From Alloascoidea africana (taxonomy: Eukaryota > Ascomycota > Alloascoideomycetes > Alloascoideales > Alloascoideaceae), in the NCBI GenBank assembly GCA_030581615.1, contig JAKTTT010000041.1, positions 62,001-126,000 on the forward strand: 64,000 nucleotides of DNA. Direction: 5' to 3'. A model generated the notes under the pieces. It saw nothing but the letters and a program-made list of their open reading frames with translations, was not told the origin of the DNA and did no database searches. The position numbers were made by a program, and so were the translations under genes. Shown here piece after piece: positions 16,585-62,850 of the stretch (positions are counted from its first letter, which is position 1; every line of letters starts with the position of its first letter).

Positions 16585-17673
16585 TTAAAGTGTTTTCAGC
16601 TTCAAGCTTTTCTTCCATCCAATAAGTTTGAATATTATGAAAATCATTAGCATTTCCACTTTATCCTTAAACATAAACAATAGTCCTTGGACCAAAACCC
16701 CCTTGGTAAGTTGTGGAGTCAGACCTTTGAACAGGCCAGGAATCCCTTCCGTTTTGTACAAGTATACCAAAACTTGTGTAAAAGAAGTAAACCTTGGCGA
16801 CGTTGGCTTTAGTTCTCTACCCAAAAAGTGAGAGCCATCTGATTTTTCAGACTTGAAGGAACTGTTTGCTGATTCAAGATCTTCCCAACTACTAGAATAC
16901 CCACTACTGGTTCCGTTCGACTCCGCCTTGTCACTGTTAATAGTTTTCCTGTTACCCTTTGACTGCAAAGTAACTTTTGAGATAATCAACGGCTGTGTAG
17001 CTGTTGTGGCTACGCCTTTTGACAATATTCCCAAGATAAAGTTTTGCTTGGCTGTCAAGAAATGGCGGTGAGGGAAAAAGATTGCTTTTAGCCGCTCATA
17101 AGTGCCATAAGTAATCGACGGATTTGAAGTTAGGACCAAGCTGGCATTCAACCCTCTCCAAAGCCCAACAAGACCTTCCTCCTTCACCACATCTGTGGCA
17201 GTTCCCAGAAGAGACTTTCGCTCATTTCTAACTGTAGTTTGCTGTCGGGTTGTGACAACTGATATGGGGAGGACAAATAAAGAACACAGAGCTCCTGCAA
17301 TCGCCCCCAGCGCCAACTCCACAGCAGTTGAGTTGTTTTCCTTTCGGTTCTGCTTGATTTTCCTCTCATAAATGTTTCTAATCCAGCTGTACCAGTAAAA
17401 GTAGAAAAAGTTTGCACTGGCACAGCCAAGAAGGCAAGCTCCCATACCATGGTACAGTCCTGCCACTCCTTCTGTCTTTATGATTTTCTGAACTGCATCC
17501 AGAGTTCCATCATAATGGGAATCTTCATCGTGATCCTCGGGTCTTTTCTTTGGCTGGACCTGGATTCTGGTTTTGATTATGTCCAAAGGATACACAGCGG
17601 CATTAGCTAAAGTTCCTGCAAGAGCACCGGCTATGGCTTTCTCCCAAGGAGACAACACAGGTGCTTTTGACAT
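16585..17673 (-). CDS. ANT1: Peroxisomal adenine nucleotide carrier (Ant1/PMP47 type)
   Basis: A 362-residue member of the mitochondrial carrier superfamily. It has three repeats with carrier signatures: PLDIIKTRIQVQ near residue 29, then the altered PISVVTTRQQ and PLIISKVTLQ. Weakened second and third signatures are typical of the peroxisomal PMP47/Ant1 branch, which exchanges cytosolic ATP for AMP so that medium-chain fatty acids can be activated inside peroxisomes. Other carrier features include TEGVAGLYHGM and EEGLVGLWRGLN. A Ser-rich insert of about 50 residues (near 230-285) separates repeat 3. S. cerevisiae Ant1 is 328 residues, so the insert explains most of the extra length. The C-terminal tail is hydrophobic and basic. 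It is a single exon with ATG at 17673. Assignment to peroxisomal rather than mitochondrial carriers is by sequence character. Confidence 0.8.
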   Translation of the reverse strand: MSKAPVLSPWEKAIAGALAGTLANAAVYPLDIIKTRIQVQPKKRPEDHDEDSHYDGTLDAVQKIIKTEGVAGLYHGMGACLLGCASANFFYFYWYSWIRNIYERKIKQNRKENNSTAVELALGAIAGALCSLFVLPISVVTTRQQTTVRNERKSLLGTATDVVKEEGLVGLWRGLNASLVLTSNPSITYGTYERLKAIFFPHRHFLTAKQNFILGILSKGVATTATQPLIISKVTLQSKGNRKTINSDKAESNGTSSGYSSSWEDLESANSSFKSEKSDGSHFLGRELKPTSPRFTSFTQVLVYLYKTEGIPGLFKGLTPQLTKGVLVQGLLFMFKDKVEMLMIFIIFKLIGWKKSLKLKTL

Positions 17674-29237: not shown

Positions 29238-30229
29238 ATGAGCTCCAGACTCGCCCTCTCCCGTCTGCCATTGGGTATGCTGCGTTTATTCTGAGGTCTG
29301 CCGGAGGTCGCTAATTTGTTTGTGTTCCAGCTGCCGCCGCTGCTGTTCGACCGGCTGCCCTTGTAGGGATCAGAACCGTCCCGTATGTGCTTTGAATATC
29401 AACTCTCCTCGGCTTTTGGTGTCTTTGTGTGTTTGCACTAGACAACTGGTCAGAGTTGGGAATTGAATGGTGCGGATCATACGGATGAATACTAACCGGT
29501 TGTATTCTCGCGGCTTGATCTCTTGTGTGTGTACATGATCTGTGTACCAACAATAGAGATCCAATTGCCGAGTTTATACTATGTTTCTAAAGTGCTGTTT
29601 CTCGCTGCTACTCGACCACTCCGGAAGACCCCAAGGCGAAGGCAACTTCAATTATTGATGCTCTTCCAGGATCCAATCTCATTTCCAAGACCGGTATTTT
29701 GGCTACCGCAACCGCTGCCACTGTTTACGGCATTAGCAATGAACTCTACGTTGTCAATGAGGAATCTCTTCTTCTAGGAACGTTTTTGGCCTTTACTTTT
29801 GGAATTGCAAAGTACGTTGCCCCAGCTTACAAAGACTATGCCGACAGCCAGGTCGAAAACATCAAAAATGTCCTCAATAGCTCTCGTGAGCGCCACGTCG
29901 ATGCTGTCAAGGAACGAATCGACTCTGTCTCCCAGTTGAAGGACGTTACAAACACAACCTCCGTTCTTTTTGAAGTCTCCAAAGAGACTGTTCAGTTAGA
30001 GGCAGAAGCTTTCGAATTGAAACAGAAAACCGACATTGCCGCGGAAGCTAAATCCGTCTTGGACTCTTGGGTTAGATACGAGGCCTCCGTTCGCCAGCGG
30101 GAACAGAAGCAACTGGCCGAGACTGTAATTGCCAAGGTCAATGCTCAAATCGGCAAGTCCAGTTTCCAACAAGAGGTGTTGAAACAGTCGGTTGCTGAGA
30201 TTGAAAAGATCTTTGCCGCTGCAAAATAG
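29238..30229 (+). CDS. ATP4: ATP synthase subunit b (Atp4), two introns
   Basis: A three-exon gene: 29238-29274, 29331-29382 and 29593-30229. Intron 1 is 56 bases (GTATGC...TTCCAG) and intron 2 is 210 bases (GTATGT, with ACTAAC near 29491, acceptor AAAG). The product is 241 residues, close to the 244 of S. cerevisiae. It starts MSSRLALSRLPLG, an Arg/Ser/Leu mitochondrial presequence, then STTPEDPKAKATSIIDALPGS, a hairpin of two membrane segments (LATATAATVYGISNELYVV... and ESLLLGTFLAFTFGIAKYV), and a long charged helix forming the peripheral stalk that holds F1 against rotation. The exon 3 acceptor was chosen because the nearer AG at 29551 leads at once to a stop; this junction is slightly less certain than the others. 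Confidence 0.92.
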
Positions 30230-34110: not shown

Positions 34111-36207
34111 TCAACCAAATACCTGATAAACATAATAAAACGAGAGAAATAGGAATAAAATAGCACTTACAAGTGTTATCGCCTTGATACTAATATTTCT
34201 GGCAAAGCCATCTCTTCCAACAACGGCCATAAAAATACAGATACCTTGCCCAGCAATAATACCCAAAGCAACAGACCAAAAGTCTGCAAAAGAGCCACCT
34301 GCCATTGCCAGAATCATCAACTGGGATCTAACACCCCATTCTTTCGAAACGGATAATGTAAAGACATGAACCCACGTTGGCGAAAGAACAAAGCTTGCAA
34401 GATTTTGTAGTCCTTCGATGATAGATTTTAGCACAGGTCCACATCTTTGAAACCACTGCCTCATTGAAGAACCATCAGATGCCTTTCTTTTGCCCTTGCC
34501 CCTGTATCCCTTCTCTAAATTGTCCAGCACTGATGAGGAAGAGGAAGAACCGTAGGAGGAGGTTGTCAGACTTTCCTCAATCTCTTGTTGTATTTCTTCC
34601 ATCTTGCCATCAATCCCTGAATCTCTCCTAGTTTTCAGGCCATCTCTTAAAGCCCTTAGACCGAGAGCTAGGAATACAGCCGCAGCTCCTATAATAGATG
34701 TTTCTTTTGAAAACAAACTGCATAAAACGGCAGCTAGGAAACAGGAAAATAACGTCATTGTGATACTCGCACACCATGCAGCAGTGGAAACTGTGTATTT
34801 AGAAGAGCTTAGAGCCATAACCACCGCAAGGAGAAATGTGTCGCTTCCAAGTTTAAAAAAAAATGTTACTATCATTGAAAAGATAAAAACGTGAAATGTG
34901 TTCTCAATTGCTTCCTGAGGGAGGGCGTCACTGGCGGTTTCCAAAAGGCTCCACCAACCAAAGCCTGCCTTATTCAATGTAGCATGTTCAGCCGGAAAGG
35001 TGTCTGGTAAAGAGGGGGCTCCTTCCGTCATGTGTTTCTCAAGCATATCATCGAAATTTCTCCCTTCATCATTGCTTTTACTCGCAACTGGATAAAGCTT
35101 TTGAGGGTTTTCATCGGCATTTTCATTCAGATGTTGATCGCCAAAAATAATTCGATCAACTGCTTCTCCCTCCTTTGCTGCTAATATTCGTGGCTTTTTC
35201 CCTGCGCCAACAGTATCGCTGTTCTCTACTGTATGGTCTATTGCTAGCATTGAGTTATCGATCTGGTTCGAGTCATACATTTCTCGAGTCGATTTCTGCT
35301 GTTCTTTAGTCTCTTTTGCAGCTGCTTCTTGCATTGGTTTTTCTGCTTTTATGGGTGCTTTTGGTGCCTCTGGTTCTTGCTTGGCTTTGTGGATATCCTG
35401 TTCTTTGGCCAATATGAAGGATCTTGAATCGTCAAGATTACTTTTACCATCTACAGATTTGTCAATTCTGTCCTTGACAACTATTTCAGAATCAAGCCCA
35501 CTCAACTTGGCACTCTCGGTGCTTTTCTTCTCATCCAAAATAGAGTCTTTCGTGCCCTTTGAAAGATCTATACTGTCATCCTGAACACTTTGAGCTTTAT
35601 CTGCAATTATATCCACCTTGCTAGAAGACTTCAAGTTCGACTCGCCCTCCGTTTTAAATTGTTTCGAATTCAATGAAGACCCCAACATCAACGATTGGGA
35701 GCCCTCTCCTTTCTGCGTACCCGCCTCTTTTCTCTTGTCGCCTGGGGCTATAGTATTATCCAGAATTGACTTTTCATTCGTATCCTCTCCAGAAGAGGGG
35801 GCCTTCTTTAAACCCCGTGTGTCTGGAGATAATGGCGATGAGCTGTCTTTAGAAGCGCCGATGCCACTTTTTCCATGAGCATTGACATCTTTCTTATTGG
35901 TATTAGTGTTTCCTGGCCTAGACAATTCGAAGCTGTCAAGTTCTACTTCGTCCTCTGTTGCAAGCTGGATTTTGTCTCCTATGCCGACTTGTTCAGAATC
36001 TACATCCAGAGATGCTAGACTTCCCTCCAAACCCTCGAGCGCCTCGGAGTTCTCTTGCTTCTTTTTCGCTGCTAGCGTAAACGCAATCTCTCTGGGATCT
36101 CGATCAAACGACAGCATCTTCCTCGTAGGATCCTCTCCGCTGAGAGCACAAACACGGACTGCATGGAGTGCAATGTATAGGAGGAATAGTACCGGGAACC
36201 TCGCCAT
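34111..36207 (-). CDS. Divergent GDT1/TMEM165-family membrane protein with long lumenal domain
   Basis: Product of 698 residues from the ATG at 36207 (a second in-frame ATG lies at 36231, next to a TATATA run that is more likely promoter). Residues 1-22 are a signal peptide. About 23-410 are low-complexity, rich in Asp, Glu, Lys and Ser. From about 415 to the end the protein follows S. cerevisiae Gdt1 (280 residues): VFIFSMI...FLLAVVMA, a hydrophobic block, a charged central loop with EEIQQEIEESL and NLEKG, LASFVLSPTWVHVF, LMILAMA, IAGQGICIFMAVVG, RNISIKAITL and a final FYYVYQVF. Gdt1 and TMEM165 are Golgi Ca/Mn-H exchangers. The two hallmark motifs are altered: the EIGDKT position reads KLGSDT and the EWGDRS position reads EWGVRS, so acidic residues thought to bind cations are missing. 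The frame is long and intact, so this is not an obvious pseudogene; it may be a functionally changed paralogue. Confidence 0.75.
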   Translation of the reverse strand: MARFPVLFLLYIALHAVRVCALSGEDPTRKMLSFDRDPREIAFTLAAKKKQENSEALEGLEGSLASLDVDSEQVGIGDKIQLATEDEVELDSFELSRPGNTNTNKKDVNAHGKSGIGASKDSSSPLSPDTRGLKKAPSSGEDTNEKSILDNTIAPGDKRKEAGTQKGEGSQSLMLGSSLNSKQFKTEGESNLKSSSKVDIIADKAQSVQDDSIDLSKGTKDSILDEKKSTESAKLSGLDSEIVVKDRIDKSVDGKSNLDDSRSFILAKEQDIHKAKQEPEAPKAPIKAEKPMQEAAAKETKEQQKSTREMYDSNQIDNSMLAIDHTVENSDTVGAGKKPRILAAKEGEAVDRIIFGDQHLNENADENPQKLYPVASKSNDEGRNFDDMLEKHMTEGAPSLPDTFPAEHATLNKAGFGWWSLLETASDALPQEAIENTFHVFIFSMIVTFFFKLGSDTFLLAVVMALSSSKYTVSTAAWCASITMTLFSCFLAAVLCSLFSKETSIIGAAAVFLALGLRALRDGLKTRRDSGIDGKMEEIQQEIEESLTTSSYGSSSSSSVLDNLEKGYRGKGKRKASDGSSMRQWFQRCGPVLKSIIEGLQNLASFVLSPTWVHVFTLSVSKEWGVRSQLMILAMAGGSFADFWSVALGIIAGQGICIFMAVVGRDGFARNISIKAITLVSAILFLFLSFYYVYQVFG

Positions 36208-37901
36208 GGTTGTGATGCATGTGAAAAGCATTTATATATTAGTGGCTGGTCATAGAACAATAGTAAGCACGCCCCGATGAATCTATTTATCAAGAAGATG
36301 TGCTGGTGACGGCTCTGTTAGTTTTCGCAGGGGTGCACAGGAAAAGAGAAGGAGAGTTTGGAGTAGGGTTTGTGCAACTAGATAGGAAGAGCCTCGAACA
36401 TTTATCCCTGGTTTGCTCGTGTTTAGGCCCCAGCCACCAGATACTTCTCAACCAACTTAACCTTGGAAAAATACGAAGAGGCTGTCTATTTAAATAGGAG
36501 CCAATACAAGATCATTACGGGTAGTGAAAAACTCTAGAGCTAGAGCTTTTTCCATTGTTCTCGCAAGCTAGACCAGTTATGTTTTGGCCACCTTTCAAGC
36601 AGTTGGTAAACACCTCTGTATTTAATAGCCTAAATATAGCGACTAGACATCAAGAAACTATAAAGAGTTTAAGTTTCTGTACGACTTTCTTTTTCTAATC
36701 GTTCTGTTCTGGACGTGGACCCGCCATTGTTTGCTGAATCAAATCGAGAAAAAAGTGAAGTAAACACATCATTAACAACGCCTTTATGGCGAGCATTTTT
36801 GGGATTTGGTTGTAAAGGCAATGGGAAATAGAAGAGGTGAAACTAAATGTACCAGCTTTCTGAAATTTCATGAGCCAGGAGACAAAATAGAGCAAGATAA
36901 GCACTTGAGCATTTGTCCCCTTCAAGCGAAACACTGCTTTATATACAATCTGTATGGAAACGACTCAAAAGATCTCATGTAACTCATTAGACAATGAAGG
37001 CACAGACATGGTGTAGTGGATTGAACATTTCCTTTTTGTACTGTTGCTGGTGTCGTCAGGCAAAGAGTTCATAGTTCTGAGGCTAAGGTATAAACCTTTT
37101 TCCAGGATTTGAAAACCTTTGAATAGTTTACACTTAGGAGAGACAATTTATACTCAGAGGGTCTAGTTGAAGATGATGTTCTAGGAAACAGGTGTATGTG
37201 TACCAGCCGGATCAATAAGATTCCAGGCTACCGCCTATACAAGCGCTTAAGTAGCGTAGATCTTGTAAAAAATACACTATCGCTTGGCTTGTCAATTCTG
37301 GACCCCAAGCTTAGTCTTGAAAGAGCATATGGACCATTTAACAGAGCTCTTTACCGAATCAAAAATTTTTATGGCTCAGTTTGCGAGTGACAAGAAAGCG
37401 GCGCTTTTTCTCAGAAAAAGTCGCGTGCTCATTTGCGCACCAAATATCTAACCACTACACATGAAGTCGTAAACTTCTTGTCACTATTCCATCGCAGGAA
37501 AGCTGGTGTAAGCCAAGAAAAGAGCTTCCTAAAGTTTAAGCAGCTTCTTTCGGACGAGTGAAACGAGGACGAATGCTTACTTAGAGCAAACATCAAATAA
37601 TAATGATAATAATAACAAAGCAAAAAACTGGATTAATGTGACAAAAGCAGAGCGAAGCCAGATCCATTCTACTTCAAATCTCGCTTTGCCAAAACAAAGC
37701 AGATAGATGTCGAAGATCTGCTTATCAGGAACCTTCAGACGCGTACAAGCAACCGCACGACACTTATGCGAAACAATCTAGTTCCGGGTAACACAAATCC
37801 CATCGGTACTTTTTCGTGTCCCGCATGTTTATTCGGGGTTCTACTTTCTCTAATTTCAACGAGTGAAGAATCACTAGAGGTTCAATAGTGACGACACCAT
37901 C
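36208..37901. other. Gene-free region between divergent genes
   Basis: About 1.7 kb between the starts of the GDT1-like gene and HDA1. A TATATA run sits at 36230-36238. A tight inverted repeat (CTTTTTCT, one base, AGAAAAAG) lies at 37404-37420, next to a minus-strand segment resembling a tRNA A box but without a B box. Short frames show no family motif. Otherwise I see nothing. Confidence 0.45.
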
Positions 37902-40657: not shown

Positions 40658-42796
40658 TCAGTCTTCAACATTATTGCTGGTATTGAAGGAACCCTTCCTT
40701 TCCTTCAGAGCCGTCATCCTGTCAGCTCTTTCCTTCTCCCCTTCTGCGATTAGCCTCCCAAATAAACCATCATCTCTCAAAGTCCAGTCAAGAGGGAGGT
40801 ATACCGAGCCAGCTTGCTCAATAGATAATTGAGCTTCAGTAAACTCTTTCGAAGATTGCCATTGCTTTGCAGAGAGCAAGGCCCATAGAGCAGCCTTACG
40901 CTGGAAACTATAACCCAGAGTTGCTGAGTCCTTGATGGGTTTAATCTTGTAAGATTGATCTTCTTCTTCGCTCTCATCAGGTTTTGAAGAAACTTCCGTT
41001 ACTGAGCTTGATCTGCTGACATCTGAACTGCCGCCTAAACTGGCACGCAATCTTCTTGATAAAGAGGACCATCTCTGCTGACTATTCATAAAATAATAGT
41101 CGTGAATTTGGAAAGTGACCACTATCCGTTCAAGAACTAGGGCTCTACCCAAGTCGTCCGGCAGCTCTTCAAGCAGCACTTTATTAAACCATTTTGCGGC
41201 ACATTCATAGGCCGAAGTTAAATCAGTCATAGTACAGAGTAGTTCACAAAACAGTAGAGTACATCTTAAAGCATAGGTTGGCAAGTCGCATCTCGATATA
41301 TATGAGTATATTGAAGAGTCTACTAATGGCTCCAGTATATCGCTTCGAGTCTTGGTTGTTAGAATAGTTGAATTCATCAAATAGCTAAGTGCGCTCATTT
41401 CTTGTGAAGCTGCTAGATATGCCCAAGCTTTATCACTGTGGAAATCCTTTCTGAGAAGCTCGTAATTTGAATATGCTGCTTTGTAATCTCTTAGCATAAA
41501 TGAATAGTCGGCCAACTTTCGAACTAGAGCCTCAGGAGAGTCGTATGGGTAATATCCTTTAGAAGCGTTGTAATTACTAGAATTGTTGGAAGACAGTGCC
41601 AACGACGGAGAAGACGACGACGTCATGAAGGACGAAAATAGTGAAGACGAAGAAGGGTTTGTAGGCTTGAAGTACTTTTTTGATGCAGAGAAAAAGCGAC
41701 TTGTTATGCTTTTGCGCGAGGAAGCCACTTGATCCTCCCATTTGGTTACACAGTCTTCCATAAATGGTATAATGTCTCTTGTGAGTAACAATTTCACATA
41801 GTTTGCCAATTCTGTGGCATCGTCCTCGTGTAATTCAGGGTATGCATTAGATGCTGATTTGTTAAGAATTTTATCCAAATCCTCCTCGATTGACGTGAAA
41901 ACGTGCTGTTTCAAGGGCTTTTTGGAGTTTGCATTTGTTAGGTCTCGGTTGATACGGATCATGAAGCAATGAACCCCAAAATGACGTTCCATTTGTTCAA
42001 ATATCGATCGGGATGTTTCCAGATTGTCGTTCTGTTCGTCATGTATTAAAAGATAAGTTCTGAGATACTCCTTGTGGATATAGTTTGGGGTATCTGGTTG
42101 ATGGCTTCTTCTGAAAAGAACCGACAGTGTCTCGATTGGTTGGGGATTCCGGCTAGAAACTGCGATTATGGAGGCGACGGGATGATTAAAGGTTTCAAAA
42201 GGAACTGCTTTACAAGTGGTCACAATTTTTGAAAAATACTTTAAATATATCGAGCTTTTGATTTCGGTTGTCCTGTCGGTTCCTACTGATAAGGTTGGCA
42301 AATCTTCCATCTCCCGTATGTAGTGTCTCATCAGTTGGTTCAACGAGCGCTCGTCAAACAGTTGCGATTCGCTTCCGCCATCTCCCGATTTGATTGATCC
42401 AAACCCCGAATCATTATCTGAACGATCTTTACCCCTGTGTTCGTATGGAGGGGCCACAAATCGAAGTGCCATTTTGTCATGCTGTCGAGGAACAGACTGT
42501 GAGTTCCTGATAGTGATCTTGCCAGGGATTGAGGCCCCAAAATGTCTCAACAAGTCCTTTAGAGAAGAAAACCCCGATCCTGTTTCCTGAATCATAGTAT
42601 CGACATCGTCGGAAGTCACCACGGCCACTCGAGGGGCATATGACGTTGCGATCAGCTGCCTACATGTTGCTGAGGTCATGGCAGGAGAGACCTGCGCTGA
42701 ACCAAGGCTCGAAGAGTTCGATCCATTGGAGAACATTGCTGGAGAGTTATGGCGCCGCGACGGGCTCGGGGACGGGGGCGAGAGCAGCGCACTCAT
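40658..42796 (-). CDS. TRS85: TRAPPIII subunit Trs85
   Basis: A 712-residue single-exon protein, close to the 698 of S. cerevisiae Trs85. After a Ser/Pro-rich head comes the family opening block APRVAVVTSDDVDTMI...GFSSLKDLLRHFG, then the conserved region around HKEYLRTYLLIHDEQ and FEQMERHFGVHCFMIRINR. A Ser-rich variable section (near 385-415) precedes helical repeats (LRKLADYSFMLRDYKAAYSNYELLRKDF). Trs85 directs the TRAPPIII exchange factor to Ypt1/Rab1 in autophagy, the Cvt pathway and endosome-to-Golgi traffic. The gene starts GC-rich and becomes more AT-rich downstream. It shares a 179-base promoter with EMP70, another Golgi/endosome gene. Confidence 0.85.
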   Translation of the reverse strand: MSALLSPPSPSPSRRHNSPAMFSNGSNSSSLGSAQVSPAMTSATCRQLIATSYAPRVAVVTSDDVDTMIQETGSGFSSLKDLLRHFGASIPGKITIRNSQSVPRQHDKMALRFVAPPYEHRGKDRSDNDSGFGSIKSGDGGSESQLFDERSLNQLMRHYIREMEDLPTLSVGTDRTTEIKSSIYLKYFSKIVTTCKAVPFETFNHPVASIIAVSSRNPQPIETLSVLFRRSHQPDTPNYIHKEYLRTYLLIHDEQNDNLETSRSIFEQMERHFGVHCFMIRINRDLTNANSKKPLKQHVFTSIEEDLDKILNKSASNAYPELHEDDATELANYVKLLLTRDIIPFMEDCVTKWEDQVASSRKSITSRFFSASKKYFKPTNPSSSSLFSSFMTSSSSPSLALSSNNSSNYNASKGYYPYDSPEALVRKLADYSFMLRDYKAAYSNYELLRKDFHSDKAWAYLAASQEMSALSYLMNSTILTTKTRSDILEPLVDSSIYSYISRCDLPTYALRCTLLFCELLCTMTDLTSAYECAAKWFNKVLLEELPDDLGRALVLERIVVTFQIHDYYFMNSQQRWSSLSRRLRASLGGSSDVSRSSSVTEVSSKPDESEEEDQSYKIKPIKDSATLGYSFQRKAALWALLSAKQWQSSKEFTEAQLSIEQAGSVYLPLDWTLRDDGLFGRLIAEGEKERADRMTALKERKGSFNTSNNVED

Positions 42797-61394: not shown

Positions 61395-62354
61395 CTAGTT
61401 GTACAGCACGAACTTGGCCTTGCCCGAGGTGAGCGCGACGGTGCACCCGTCCGTGCCCTGGCCGTTGTAGCTGCCGTTCTCGTAGATACAGGTGCCGCTG
61501 ACCTTGGCCCCATCGTCTCCCACGATCTTGACGTTGTAGTTGGGCGGGTTCTCGTTGTTGGGGTTCGGGATCAGCGACAGGTAGGTGACGTCGCCCGTGG
61601 TGCCGGCGCCAAACACGAGAGGCGCCCAGTTGCCCACGGTGCCGTCCTCGGTGCCCCAGATGCACCCGTCCTCGACCTCGATTCCGGCGTTGTTGACGTA
61701 GTACTGGGCCGACGTCTTGAGACCCTTCCACTCGAAGTACGAGTCCTCCTCCACGACCGTCAGCACCTTGCTCTCGCCGCCTTGCACGACCGTGGGCACG
61801 TTCATGTTCTCGCTGCCAGGGTAGTCTGTGCGGCACACCGTCACGACCTTGTCCAGCTCGGACTCCACGTACGCGGTATCCGCGCCCCAGACGCACAGAG
61901 TGTCGAAGTCCGTGTTGCTTCGATACAGGTAGCCGTCTTTACAGTAGAGGCCCCCAACTGAAGCTCCCGAGGCAGGCTGCGCACTGGGCCATTGCGTCTT
62001 GGACATTCCGGCCTGGCACGCATAAGAGCAGTACTTGCCGTCCTCACACGCGGTTGCAGAGTTGGCGTCTCCATCCGAAATGGTCGTCCATCCATCAAGT
62101 CCAATCCAGTCTATTGCAATCACTCCTTGTCCCGCAGGAAACGAGGAGCACTTGATCGTCCCGTCTTCAAACTTCTCGCTCGGCTTTTCAAAGTCCTTGA
62201 GGTCTCCCTCGATGCCCGAGCTTGATTTGTTATTGTTATTGTTATTGTTTTGTTCCGCCTCTCGCCTGTGCAAGTGGTGGACATGTTCCAAAGGAGCAGG
62301 TGCCGCCAAAACTGAAGCAGCCAAAAATGTTGAAAAAATCGCAGAGTATTTCAT
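61395..62354 (-). CDS. SUN-family beta-glucan-associated wall protein
   Basis: A 319-residue secreted protein. The signal peptide covers residues 1-17 ([17 protein letters not shown]), with a dibasic HRR site near 26 fitting Kex2 processing and an Asn-rich spacer. The SUN domain follows (about 75-319), with conserved [46 protein letters not shown] and [15 protein letters not shown]. These are the hallmark Cys-rich blocks of Sim1/Uth1/Nca3/Sun4. SUN proteins act in wall glucan remodelling and septation; Uth1 has a disputed mitochondrial role. It is a single exon. The 3' two thirds are very GC-rich while the first 100 codons are not. It is shorter than the long Ser-rich S. cerevisiae members, matching the compact fungal SUN form. 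Confidence 0.93.
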
Positions 62355-62850
62355 CCTATAATGCACTTGATTCTACAAATCGTATCCCCCACATCTATTG
62401 TTAGATTATATCGTCTTCATGTTTTGGGCCAACCCAAAAACGGAATAAGGTTGAGAGGTGGGGTCTCACAGTACGTACCTGAACAGAACGGAAAAAAAAA
62501 AGAAGCGAATGACTTGTCTTTGAAAGAAGTGAGTTTAGGGTTTAGGGTTGGGTTTTTTGTTATTTCCCAAGAAAAAGAGCGACTATAATCGAGTGTATCT
62601 AGGTGTATTCGATTCACAAGAAAGAAGGGGAAGAGGAAAGAAGAGAAAGAAGGATATAAAAATTTGAAAGGAGATACAAGGCGGAAAAAGCTGAGCCCAT
62701 TCCCAAGATTTCCAAATCCTGGCCTTTGCAGCTCGCACCGGGATCTTCAGCCGGACAGCCCCTGGCCGGGTAGCCCCTGGCCCCTGGCAATCGCAGGCTC
62801 TTCGCTCTTAGTTCTCGCACTCGCACTCGCACTCGCACTCGCACTCGCTC
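62355..62850 (-). promoter_or_regulatory. SUN-gene promoter with telomere-like TTTAGGG repeats
   Basis: About 500 bases between the SUN start and the PGC1 stop. TTTAGGGTTTAGGGTT at 62534-62549 contains two TTAGGG cores, the site of Tbf1-type factors, about 180 bases upstream of the SUN ATG. Purine runs lie near 62620-62660. Confidence 0.4.
62814..62848. repeat. CTCGCA hexanucleotide repeat
   Basis: About five and a half CTCGCA units ending directly before the PGC1-type stop codon, so it is in the 3' untranslated region. No function is evident. Confidence 0.85.

What the first reader, a model, noticed from the sequence alone, without database searches (positions are those of the whole stretch)
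34111..36207. GDT1/TMEM165 homologue that has lost the acidic cation-binding motifs and gained a long lumenal domain
Seen: in the two family hallmark positions (normally E-x-G-D-K/R-T/S) this protein reads KLGSDT near residue 452 and EWGVRS near 624, while the surrounding helices and loops follow Gdt1 closely. A signal peptide and about 390 residues of Asp/Glu/Lys/Ser-rich sequence precede the membrane part. Known: in Gdt1/TMEM165 these Glu and Asp residues are required for Ca/Mn transport. Inference: this may be a non-transporting or differently selective paralogue, for example a sensor or regulatory partner in the Golgi, with the acidic stretch acting as a low-affinity cation buffer.
Basis: partly seen in the sequence, partly recalled or inferred. 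Interest (0 to 1): 0.75.

Follow-up and report, generated by a model that had tools for sequence, protein, structure and literature searches.

The report
GDT1-like yeast protein lacking transport motifs
This yeast carries, beside two normal copies of a Golgi calcium/manganese transporter gene, a third intact but fast-evolving copy whose metal-binding residues have mostly been replaced, so it probably no longer moves metal and may have been kept for another job.

Summary
Window 34111-36231 (minus) is an intact 706-codon ORF with two Pfam GDT1 repeats. Where the family reads E-x-G-D-K/R-S/T, it reads KLGSDT and EWGVRS. Three of four acidic residues needed for transport in Gdt1p are gone; both hydroxyl residues and the second Glu remain. 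Motif charge goes from -2 to 0, and the Glu/Lys i,i+4 pair of motif 1 becomes Lys/Asp. A one-base change in the T-run gives a stop, not the canonical motif.

The genome has two canonical GDT1 genes (C25, C5). ATP4 and a mitochondrial carrier lie beside the window copy in the same order as beside the C25 copy, pointing to an old block duplication (no chance control). The window copy has a far longer branch and keeps deeply invariant sites no better than variable ones. Still, omega = 1 on its branch is rejected (omega about 0.06; 2dlnL 11.5; silent sites saturated).

Best reading: a retained, probably non-transporting pseudo-antiporter, with regulator or sensor the likeliest role. "Acidic buffer" is weakly supported: the lumenal region is about four times longer than in the paralogues but no more acidic. 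No orthologues could be reached, so recent relaxation is not excluded.

The parts
34111..36231 (-). GDT1-family paralogue, 706 codons plus stop; a second in-frame ATG, with better context by eye, lies at 36207 (698 codons)
   Evidence: no stop in frame; of two canonical-type donor sites one lies inside the gene (34170) and one past its stop (34094), and no branch-like site follows either in the stretch scanned
36142..36198 (-). hydrophobic segment, residues 12-30, probable signal peptide
   Evidence: hydropathy 2.05 over 19 residues; no signal-peptide predictor was available
34897..36141 (-). lumenal N-terminal region, residues 31-445, low-complexity polyampholyte without Cys
   Evidence: D+E 80, K+R 56 of 415; canonical paralogues have 114 and 86 residues here; no tandem repeats; no match to this part in the genome
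34837..34854 (-). motif 1, K460-L-G-S-D-T in place of E-I-G-D-K-T
34405..34647 (-). central cytosolic loop, residues 529-609, no longer net acidic
34324..34341 (-). motif 2, E631-W-G-V-R-S in place of E-W-G-D-R-S
34114..34893 (-). membrane part, residues 447-706, six hydrophobic spans as two groups of three; helices broken at both motifs in the predicted model
   Evidence: hydropathy; AlphaFold2 model, mean pLDDT 80.8
29699..30226 (+). ATP4-like gene; its paralogue lies beside the canonical GDT1 on contig C25
   Evidence: PF05405; two places in the genome, the other 94% identical; 4-fold sites 43% identical
16588..17673 (-). mitochondrial carrier gene; its paralogue lies at C25:85974-87221 beside the ATP4 and GDT1 copies
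   Evidence: PF00153; 64% identity over 362 aa

Best explanation
This is a GDT1 paralogue, probably from an old block duplication, that has lost the divalent-cation/proton antiport site but has been kept as a membrane protein: a pseudo-antiporter. In the canonical site four acidic and two basic residues from two inverted repeats leave a net charge of -2 that a Ca2+ or Mn2+ could neutralise. Here the site reads K460, S463, D464, E631, V634, R635 with net charge 0. An internal Lys could occupy the place of the metal and pair with D464 or E631, which would hold the fold without a metal. The likeliest role is regulatory: a non-transporting lumen-facing partner or sensor acting beside the two canonical GDT1 proteins and the PMR1-type pump, with the long lumenal tail as its interaction surface. 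Shown: the homology, the residue changes, the canonical copies, the intact frame, and purifying selection averaged over the branch. Inferred: loss of transport (likely), the internal ion pair (possible), and the regulatory role (a guess by analogy).
For: Two canonical GDT1 genes in the same genome, and one PMR1-type ATPase over the family cut-off (7 of 42 candidates were scored). Three of four acidic residues required for Gdt1p activity are replaced (PMC7380456 section 12). The frame is intact over 706 codons. In a simulation of neutral change to the observed divergence (0.46 substitutions per site), 0 of 200 runs kept the 265-codon membrane part of the C25 copy free of stops. The branch-specific codon model over 245 codons gives omega 0.064 for this branch and rejects omega = 1 (2dlnL 11.5, 1 df). 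Second codon positions are 66% identical to the C25 copy and third positions 34%. The predicted fold keeps broken helices at both motifs. Constraint has been re-drawn: where both canonical copies agree, the gene keeps 34 of 69 (49%) sites in columns at least 90% conserved in cyanobacteria, 17 of 36 at 60-90%, 15 of 34 below 60% and 4 of 7 without a cyanobacterial column.
Against: No orthologue was available, so selection on the changed residues themselves is not shown. The test averages over the branch; silent sites are saturated and branch lengths in the model are badly determined. The flat retention profile would also fit relaxed constraint. Two omega classes fit no better than one (2dlnL 0.43), and with three free omegas this branch (0.067) is like the C5 copy's (0.069), so a shift in selection strength is not shown by that test. 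There are no expression or localisation data. The predicted model used only cyanobacterial homologues as its alignment, so its fold is partly imposed, and no coordinates could be measured.
Confidence: 0.55

Rival explanations
1. A redundant paralogue in decay: constraint was relaxed after duplication and there is no present function, but stops have not yet accumulated.
For: Very long end branch (6.42 against 0.51 and 0.22 changes per column; the program warns that its place is unsure). Invariant family sites are changed as often as variable ones. The net-negative central loop is lost. Two intact canonical copies could cover the function.
Against: Silent sites are saturated while the frame has no stop. 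omega = 1 on the branch is rejected. Hydropathy of all six spans is kept. The extra ~300 lumenal codons are open too, and in that part (codons 1-400) the reading frame has the best codon-usage score of the three sense frames in each of four blocks, though an antisense frame comes near it or exceeds it (first block 0.106 against 0.071).
Confidence: 0.22
2. A working transporter with other selectivity, for example another cation, a proton-uncoupled path, or an organic substrate as in other LysE-superfamily members.
For: The fold, the hydroxyl residues T465 and S636, the following F466, E631 and R635 are kept. A plant subfamily with E-x-G-D-E-T shows that motif charge can drift (PMC4067407, section 8 read).
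Against: Single Ala or Gly changes at E or D of either motif already impair transport in three members. Here three such positions are changed at once and the site is charge-neutral.
Confidence: 0.13
3. The function lies in the long lumenal region and the degenerate transporter is only a Golgi membrane anchor.
For: 415 lumenal residues against 114 and 86 in the paralogues. The membrane part is free to change but must stay foldable.
Against: The lumenal region has no Pfam match over a cut-off, no tandem repeat and no match in the genome. EWG-RSQ and many small membrane residues are still kept.
Confidence: 0.15
4. Sequencing or assembly error, or a wrong gene model.
For: A nine-base T-run precedes motif 1.
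Against: One base more there stops the frame at residue 460, one less at 474. The motif codons lie after the run, in the frame fixed by downstream homology. Motif 2 is changed as well, 500 bases away. No intron signals that could be used were found.
Confidence: 0.02

Closest known systems
GDT1 / TMEM165 / UPF0016 family (CaCA2, TCDB 2.A.106): S. cerevisiae Gdt1p, human TMEM165, V. cholerae MneA
   Same: Homologous over both repeats; six spans as 3+3; signal segment and lumenal N-terminus; T and S of the motifs, second Glu and Arg kept
   Different: Neither motif intact; three of four required acids gone; central loop no longer net acidic; lumenal part about four times longer than in the canonical copies of this genome
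Plant UPF0016 subfamily IX (E-x-G-D-E-T first motif; PMC4067407, section 8 read)
   Same: A family member with an altered charge in motif 1
   Different: It keeps both acids and gains a third; the window protein loses them
Non-transporting transporter-like sensors Snf3, Rgt2, Ssy1 (review PMC5890159, passages read)
   Same: Paralogues of working transporters that have lost transport, which is here only inferred. That these sensors carry long soluble extensions is recalled, not read here
   Different: Unrelated folds; they sit at the plasma membrane with cytosolic extensions (recalled); their signalling is established, here nothing is

Membership tests
GDT1/UPF0016 | Sequence homology to PF01169 over two repeats | tested here: met
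   51.6 bits, cut-off 27; both repeats over the cut-off
GDT1/UPF0016 | One or two copies of E-(hydrophobic)-G-D-(K/R)-(S/T), the definition in PMC4067407 | tested here: not met
   0 of 2 motifs intact
[quoted passage not shown]
   Hydropathy shows six spans after the signal segment; predicted model agrees
GDT1/UPF0016 | Acid-rich central loop | tested here: not met
   D+E 12, K+R 14 of 81 residues, against 17/9 and 14/8 in the canonical copies; a short acidic stretch MEEIQQEIEE remains
GDT1/UPF0016 | Ca2+/Mn2+ against H+ antiport | not testable with these tools
   Expected absent from mutagenesis of homologues
GDT1/UPF0016 | Golgi location | not testable with these tools
   Only a hydrophobic N-terminal segment was seen
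Non-transporting transceptor | Paralogue of a working transporter | tested here: inconclusive
   Paralogues with intact motifs lie on C25 and C5; that they transport is inferred, not tested
Non-transporting transceptor | Loss of transport with signalling retained | not testable with these tools
   Loss inferred from residues; no evidence on signalling

The most novel reading that the evidence does not exclude
A Golgi 'transceptor': a GDT1 homologue that has swapped its metal site for an internal Lys-acid ion pair and uses its long lumenal tail and transporter fold to sense lumenal Ca2+, Mn2+ or pH and to regulate the canonical GDT1/PMR1 pair. It would be the first non-transporting GDT1 homologue that I know of (none seen in the listings of searches), and a transporter-derived sensor inside the Golgi, for which I ran no search.
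Probability: 0.18. Interest if true: 0.82.

Novelty: new variant of a known kind. Interest (0 to 1): 0.52.

Why it matters
GDT1 proteins supply the Golgi with Mn2+ and Ca2+ for glycosylation, and TMEM165 mutations cause a congenital disorder of glycosylation (PMC11345563, abstract and passages). PMC4067407 states that most eukaryotes other than plants have a single member, and that paper and PMC7380456 treat the two acidic motifs as the core of the family. A yeast with three copies, one of which has lost both motifs yet stayed open under selection, is a natural mutagenesis experiment. It separates what the fold needs from what transport needs. If the copy is regulatory, it would offer a way into how Golgi metal supply is sensed.

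Tried and rejected
Assembly error at the T-run: rejected. CTG reassignment as the source of the changes: rejected, no motif codon is CTG. Intron misreading: rejected (only GTATGT, GTAAGT and GTACGT donors were sought). Tandem-repeat expansion as the origin of the lumenal region: none found. Fusion with another gene of this genome: no match to that part. Pfam CDC37_N match to the lumenal region (E 0.065, below its cut-off): taken as chance.

Solved structure of a relative: phmmer found none (only row E 0.75). Foldseek against PDB gave 0 matches at E <= 0.001 and 241 at E <= 10, 50 of them shown; the top rows include Na+/Ca2+ and Ca2+/H+ exchangers, but at E 0.4 and more and TM about 0.15, so uninformative. 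Pairwise dS was undefined by NG86, YN00 failed and ML gave saturated values of 4 to 16; a three-sequence codon model was used instead. The tree does not resolve which canonical copy is nearer (support 13 for the two canonical copies together), so descent from the C25 side rests on neighbours alone. The search for related loci on genome contigs gave 133 pattern matches and no relative.

Papers: the listings of searches (20 of 24, 15 of 24, 0 of 0 and 6 of 6 rows shown) showed no title or abstract start about a motif-less GDT1; this speaks only for that library and for those lines. Searches (3, 0 and 9 papers, listings only, none opened) looked for a described genome duplication in candidate yeasts. 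The species was not identified.

Full report
What is there. It matches Pfam GDT1 with 51.6 bits, and both repeats are over the cut-off in a six-frame search of the genome. A hydrophobic N-terminal segment is followed by 415 hydrophilic residues and six hydrophobic spans.

Motifs. Aligned to the two canonical paralogues, motif 1 EIGDKT is KLGSDT (residues 460-465) and motif 2 EWGDRS is EWGVRS (631-636). By the published numbering (PMC7380456, section 12 read) the changes fall on the equivalents of Gdt1p E53, D56 and D207, each of which impairs activity when changed alone. The equivalents of E204, T58 and S209, also needed, are kept, as is the Phe that follows motif 1 (F114 in TMEM165). The lysine of motif 1, needed in MneA (K23), has become Asp. 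The formal charge of the two motifs goes from -2 to 0. The Glu(i)/Lys(i+4) pair of motif 1 becomes Lys(i)/Asp(i+4). This polarity swap is read from the sequence; that it forms an ion pair in the protein is inference.

Canonical copies. The genome (23.2 Mb, 138 contigs) holds two more GDT1 genes, 384 and 345 aa by my choice of start codon, both with intact motifs. A whole-genome search with the window protein finds only these two besides itself. PMC4067407 (abstract, sections 5 and 8 read) states that most eukaryotes other than plants have one member, so three copies are already unusual.

Origin. Going along the contig, the window copy has a mitochondrial carrier (16588-17673), ATP4 (29699-30226) and then GDT1. 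C25 has the same three in the same order within 8 kb, with the carrier inverted. ATP4 is found at two places in the genome, these two. Silent sites are far diverged in all three pairs: 4-fold identity 0.43 for ATP4 (75 sites), 0.43 for the carrier (94) and 0.22 for GDT1 (49). The pairs are therefore old. C25 and C5 also share GDT1 plus two genes, one of them an SNF2 helicase (a large family, recalled), and the window shares a SUN-family gene with C5. In the same comparison a 30-kb stretch of C22, fetched for its TRS85 homologue, gave only one match to C25 or C5 (32% identity). Gene families kept at single copy in other yeasts speak neither way clearly. 14 separate proteasome places were found, the number in S. 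cerevisiae (recalled). TCP1/Cpn60 gave eight strong places plus two weaker full-length ones and a part of a 1708-codon frame, against nine genes in S. cerevisiae (recalled), so one may be duplicated. HDA1 of the window has no second close copy (33-38% to others), while TRS85 has one. The block duplication is likely but lacks a chance control.

Rate and selection. In a tree with 40 cyanobacterial rows the three yeast proteins group (SH-aLRT 98, with a long-branch warning). The window copy has an end branch of 6.42 against 0.51 and 0.22; the inner order is unresolved (support 13). Counting columns where both canonical copies agree, the window protein keeps 34 of 69 at columns at least 90% conserved in cyanobacteria, 17 of 36 at 60-90%, 15 of 34 below 60%, and 4 of 7 with no cyanobacterial column. 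Of 51 columns identical in both canonical copies and in at least 90% of 76 cyanobacterial rows, it keeps 27. The old transport constraint has therefore gone. Constraint itself has not: codon positions 1, 2 and 3 are 0.525, 0.658 and 0.335 identical to the C25 copy. A three-branch codon model on 245 codons gives omega 0.064 for this branch, and fixing it at 1 costs 5.75 log units (2dlnL 11.5, 1 df, p about 0.0007 by my reckoning). One shared omega fits as well as two (2dlnL 0.43), and with three free values this branch (0.067) equals the C5 copy's (0.069), so stronger or weaker selection than in the canonical copies is not shown; silent change is saturated and branch lengths are badly determined. 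Neutral simulations to the same divergence gave on average 7.6 stops in the membrane part and 22.2 in the whole frame, and no stop-free run in 200; at 0.1 substitutions per site 19 of 200 runs of the membrane part were still stop-free. These tests average over the branch, so relaxation late in it is not excluded.

Lumenal region. It is 415 residues long against 114 and 86. Its acidic fraction, 0.19, lies between the paralogues' 0.21 and 0.15, and its net charge is -24. There are no tandem repeats, no N-glycosylation sequon and no Cys in it, and no Pfam match over a cut-off. 'Longer' is shown; 'acidic buffer' is not.

Structure. AlphaFold2 on residues 424-706 with 60 cyanobacterial homologues gives mean pLDDT 80.8, pTM 0.71, with helices broken at both motifs (helices 16-37/41-52 and 195-208/212-223 of the fragment). 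The alignment rows are canonical, so this shows compatibility with the fold, not function. No coordinates were available to measure K460-E631 or K460-D464 distances.

Verdict. The finding is real and is not an artefact. The protein descends from the GDT1 family but fails the family's motif definition, so it should be called a GDT1 homologue or pseudo-antiporter, not a Ca/Mn antiporter. Loss of transport is likely (about 0.75, my judgement). A selected regulatory role is the best guess for why it is kept, by analogy with Snf3, Rgt2 and Ssy1 (review PMC5890159, passages read), but nothing here shows signalling.

Noticed in passing
window 16588-17673, 29699-30226, 34111-36231, 61398-62366 with C25:85974-93738 and C5:458707-508184: Three GDT1 loci lie in regions that share other old paralogue pairs (mitochondrial carrier and ATP4 with C25; SUN family with C5; SNF2 helicase and a 130-aa stretch at 76% between C25 and C5), hinting at ancient polyploidy or repeated segmental duplication in this yeast.
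   Followed up: partly
window 40661-42796: TRS85 has a second full-length homologue at C22:231259-233427 (32% identity over 656 aa, Pfam Trs85 match); a duplicated TRAPP subunit is unusual (recalled).
   Followed up: partly
window 29699-30226: Two ATP4 (ATP synthase subunit b) genes with 94% identical proteins but only 43% identity at 4-fold sites: an old duplicate kept under strong constraint.
   Followed up: partly
window 34405-34647: The central loop of the window GDT1 copy has a Ser run and basic residues (KGKRK) not present in the canonical copies and is no longer net acidic.
   Followed up: no
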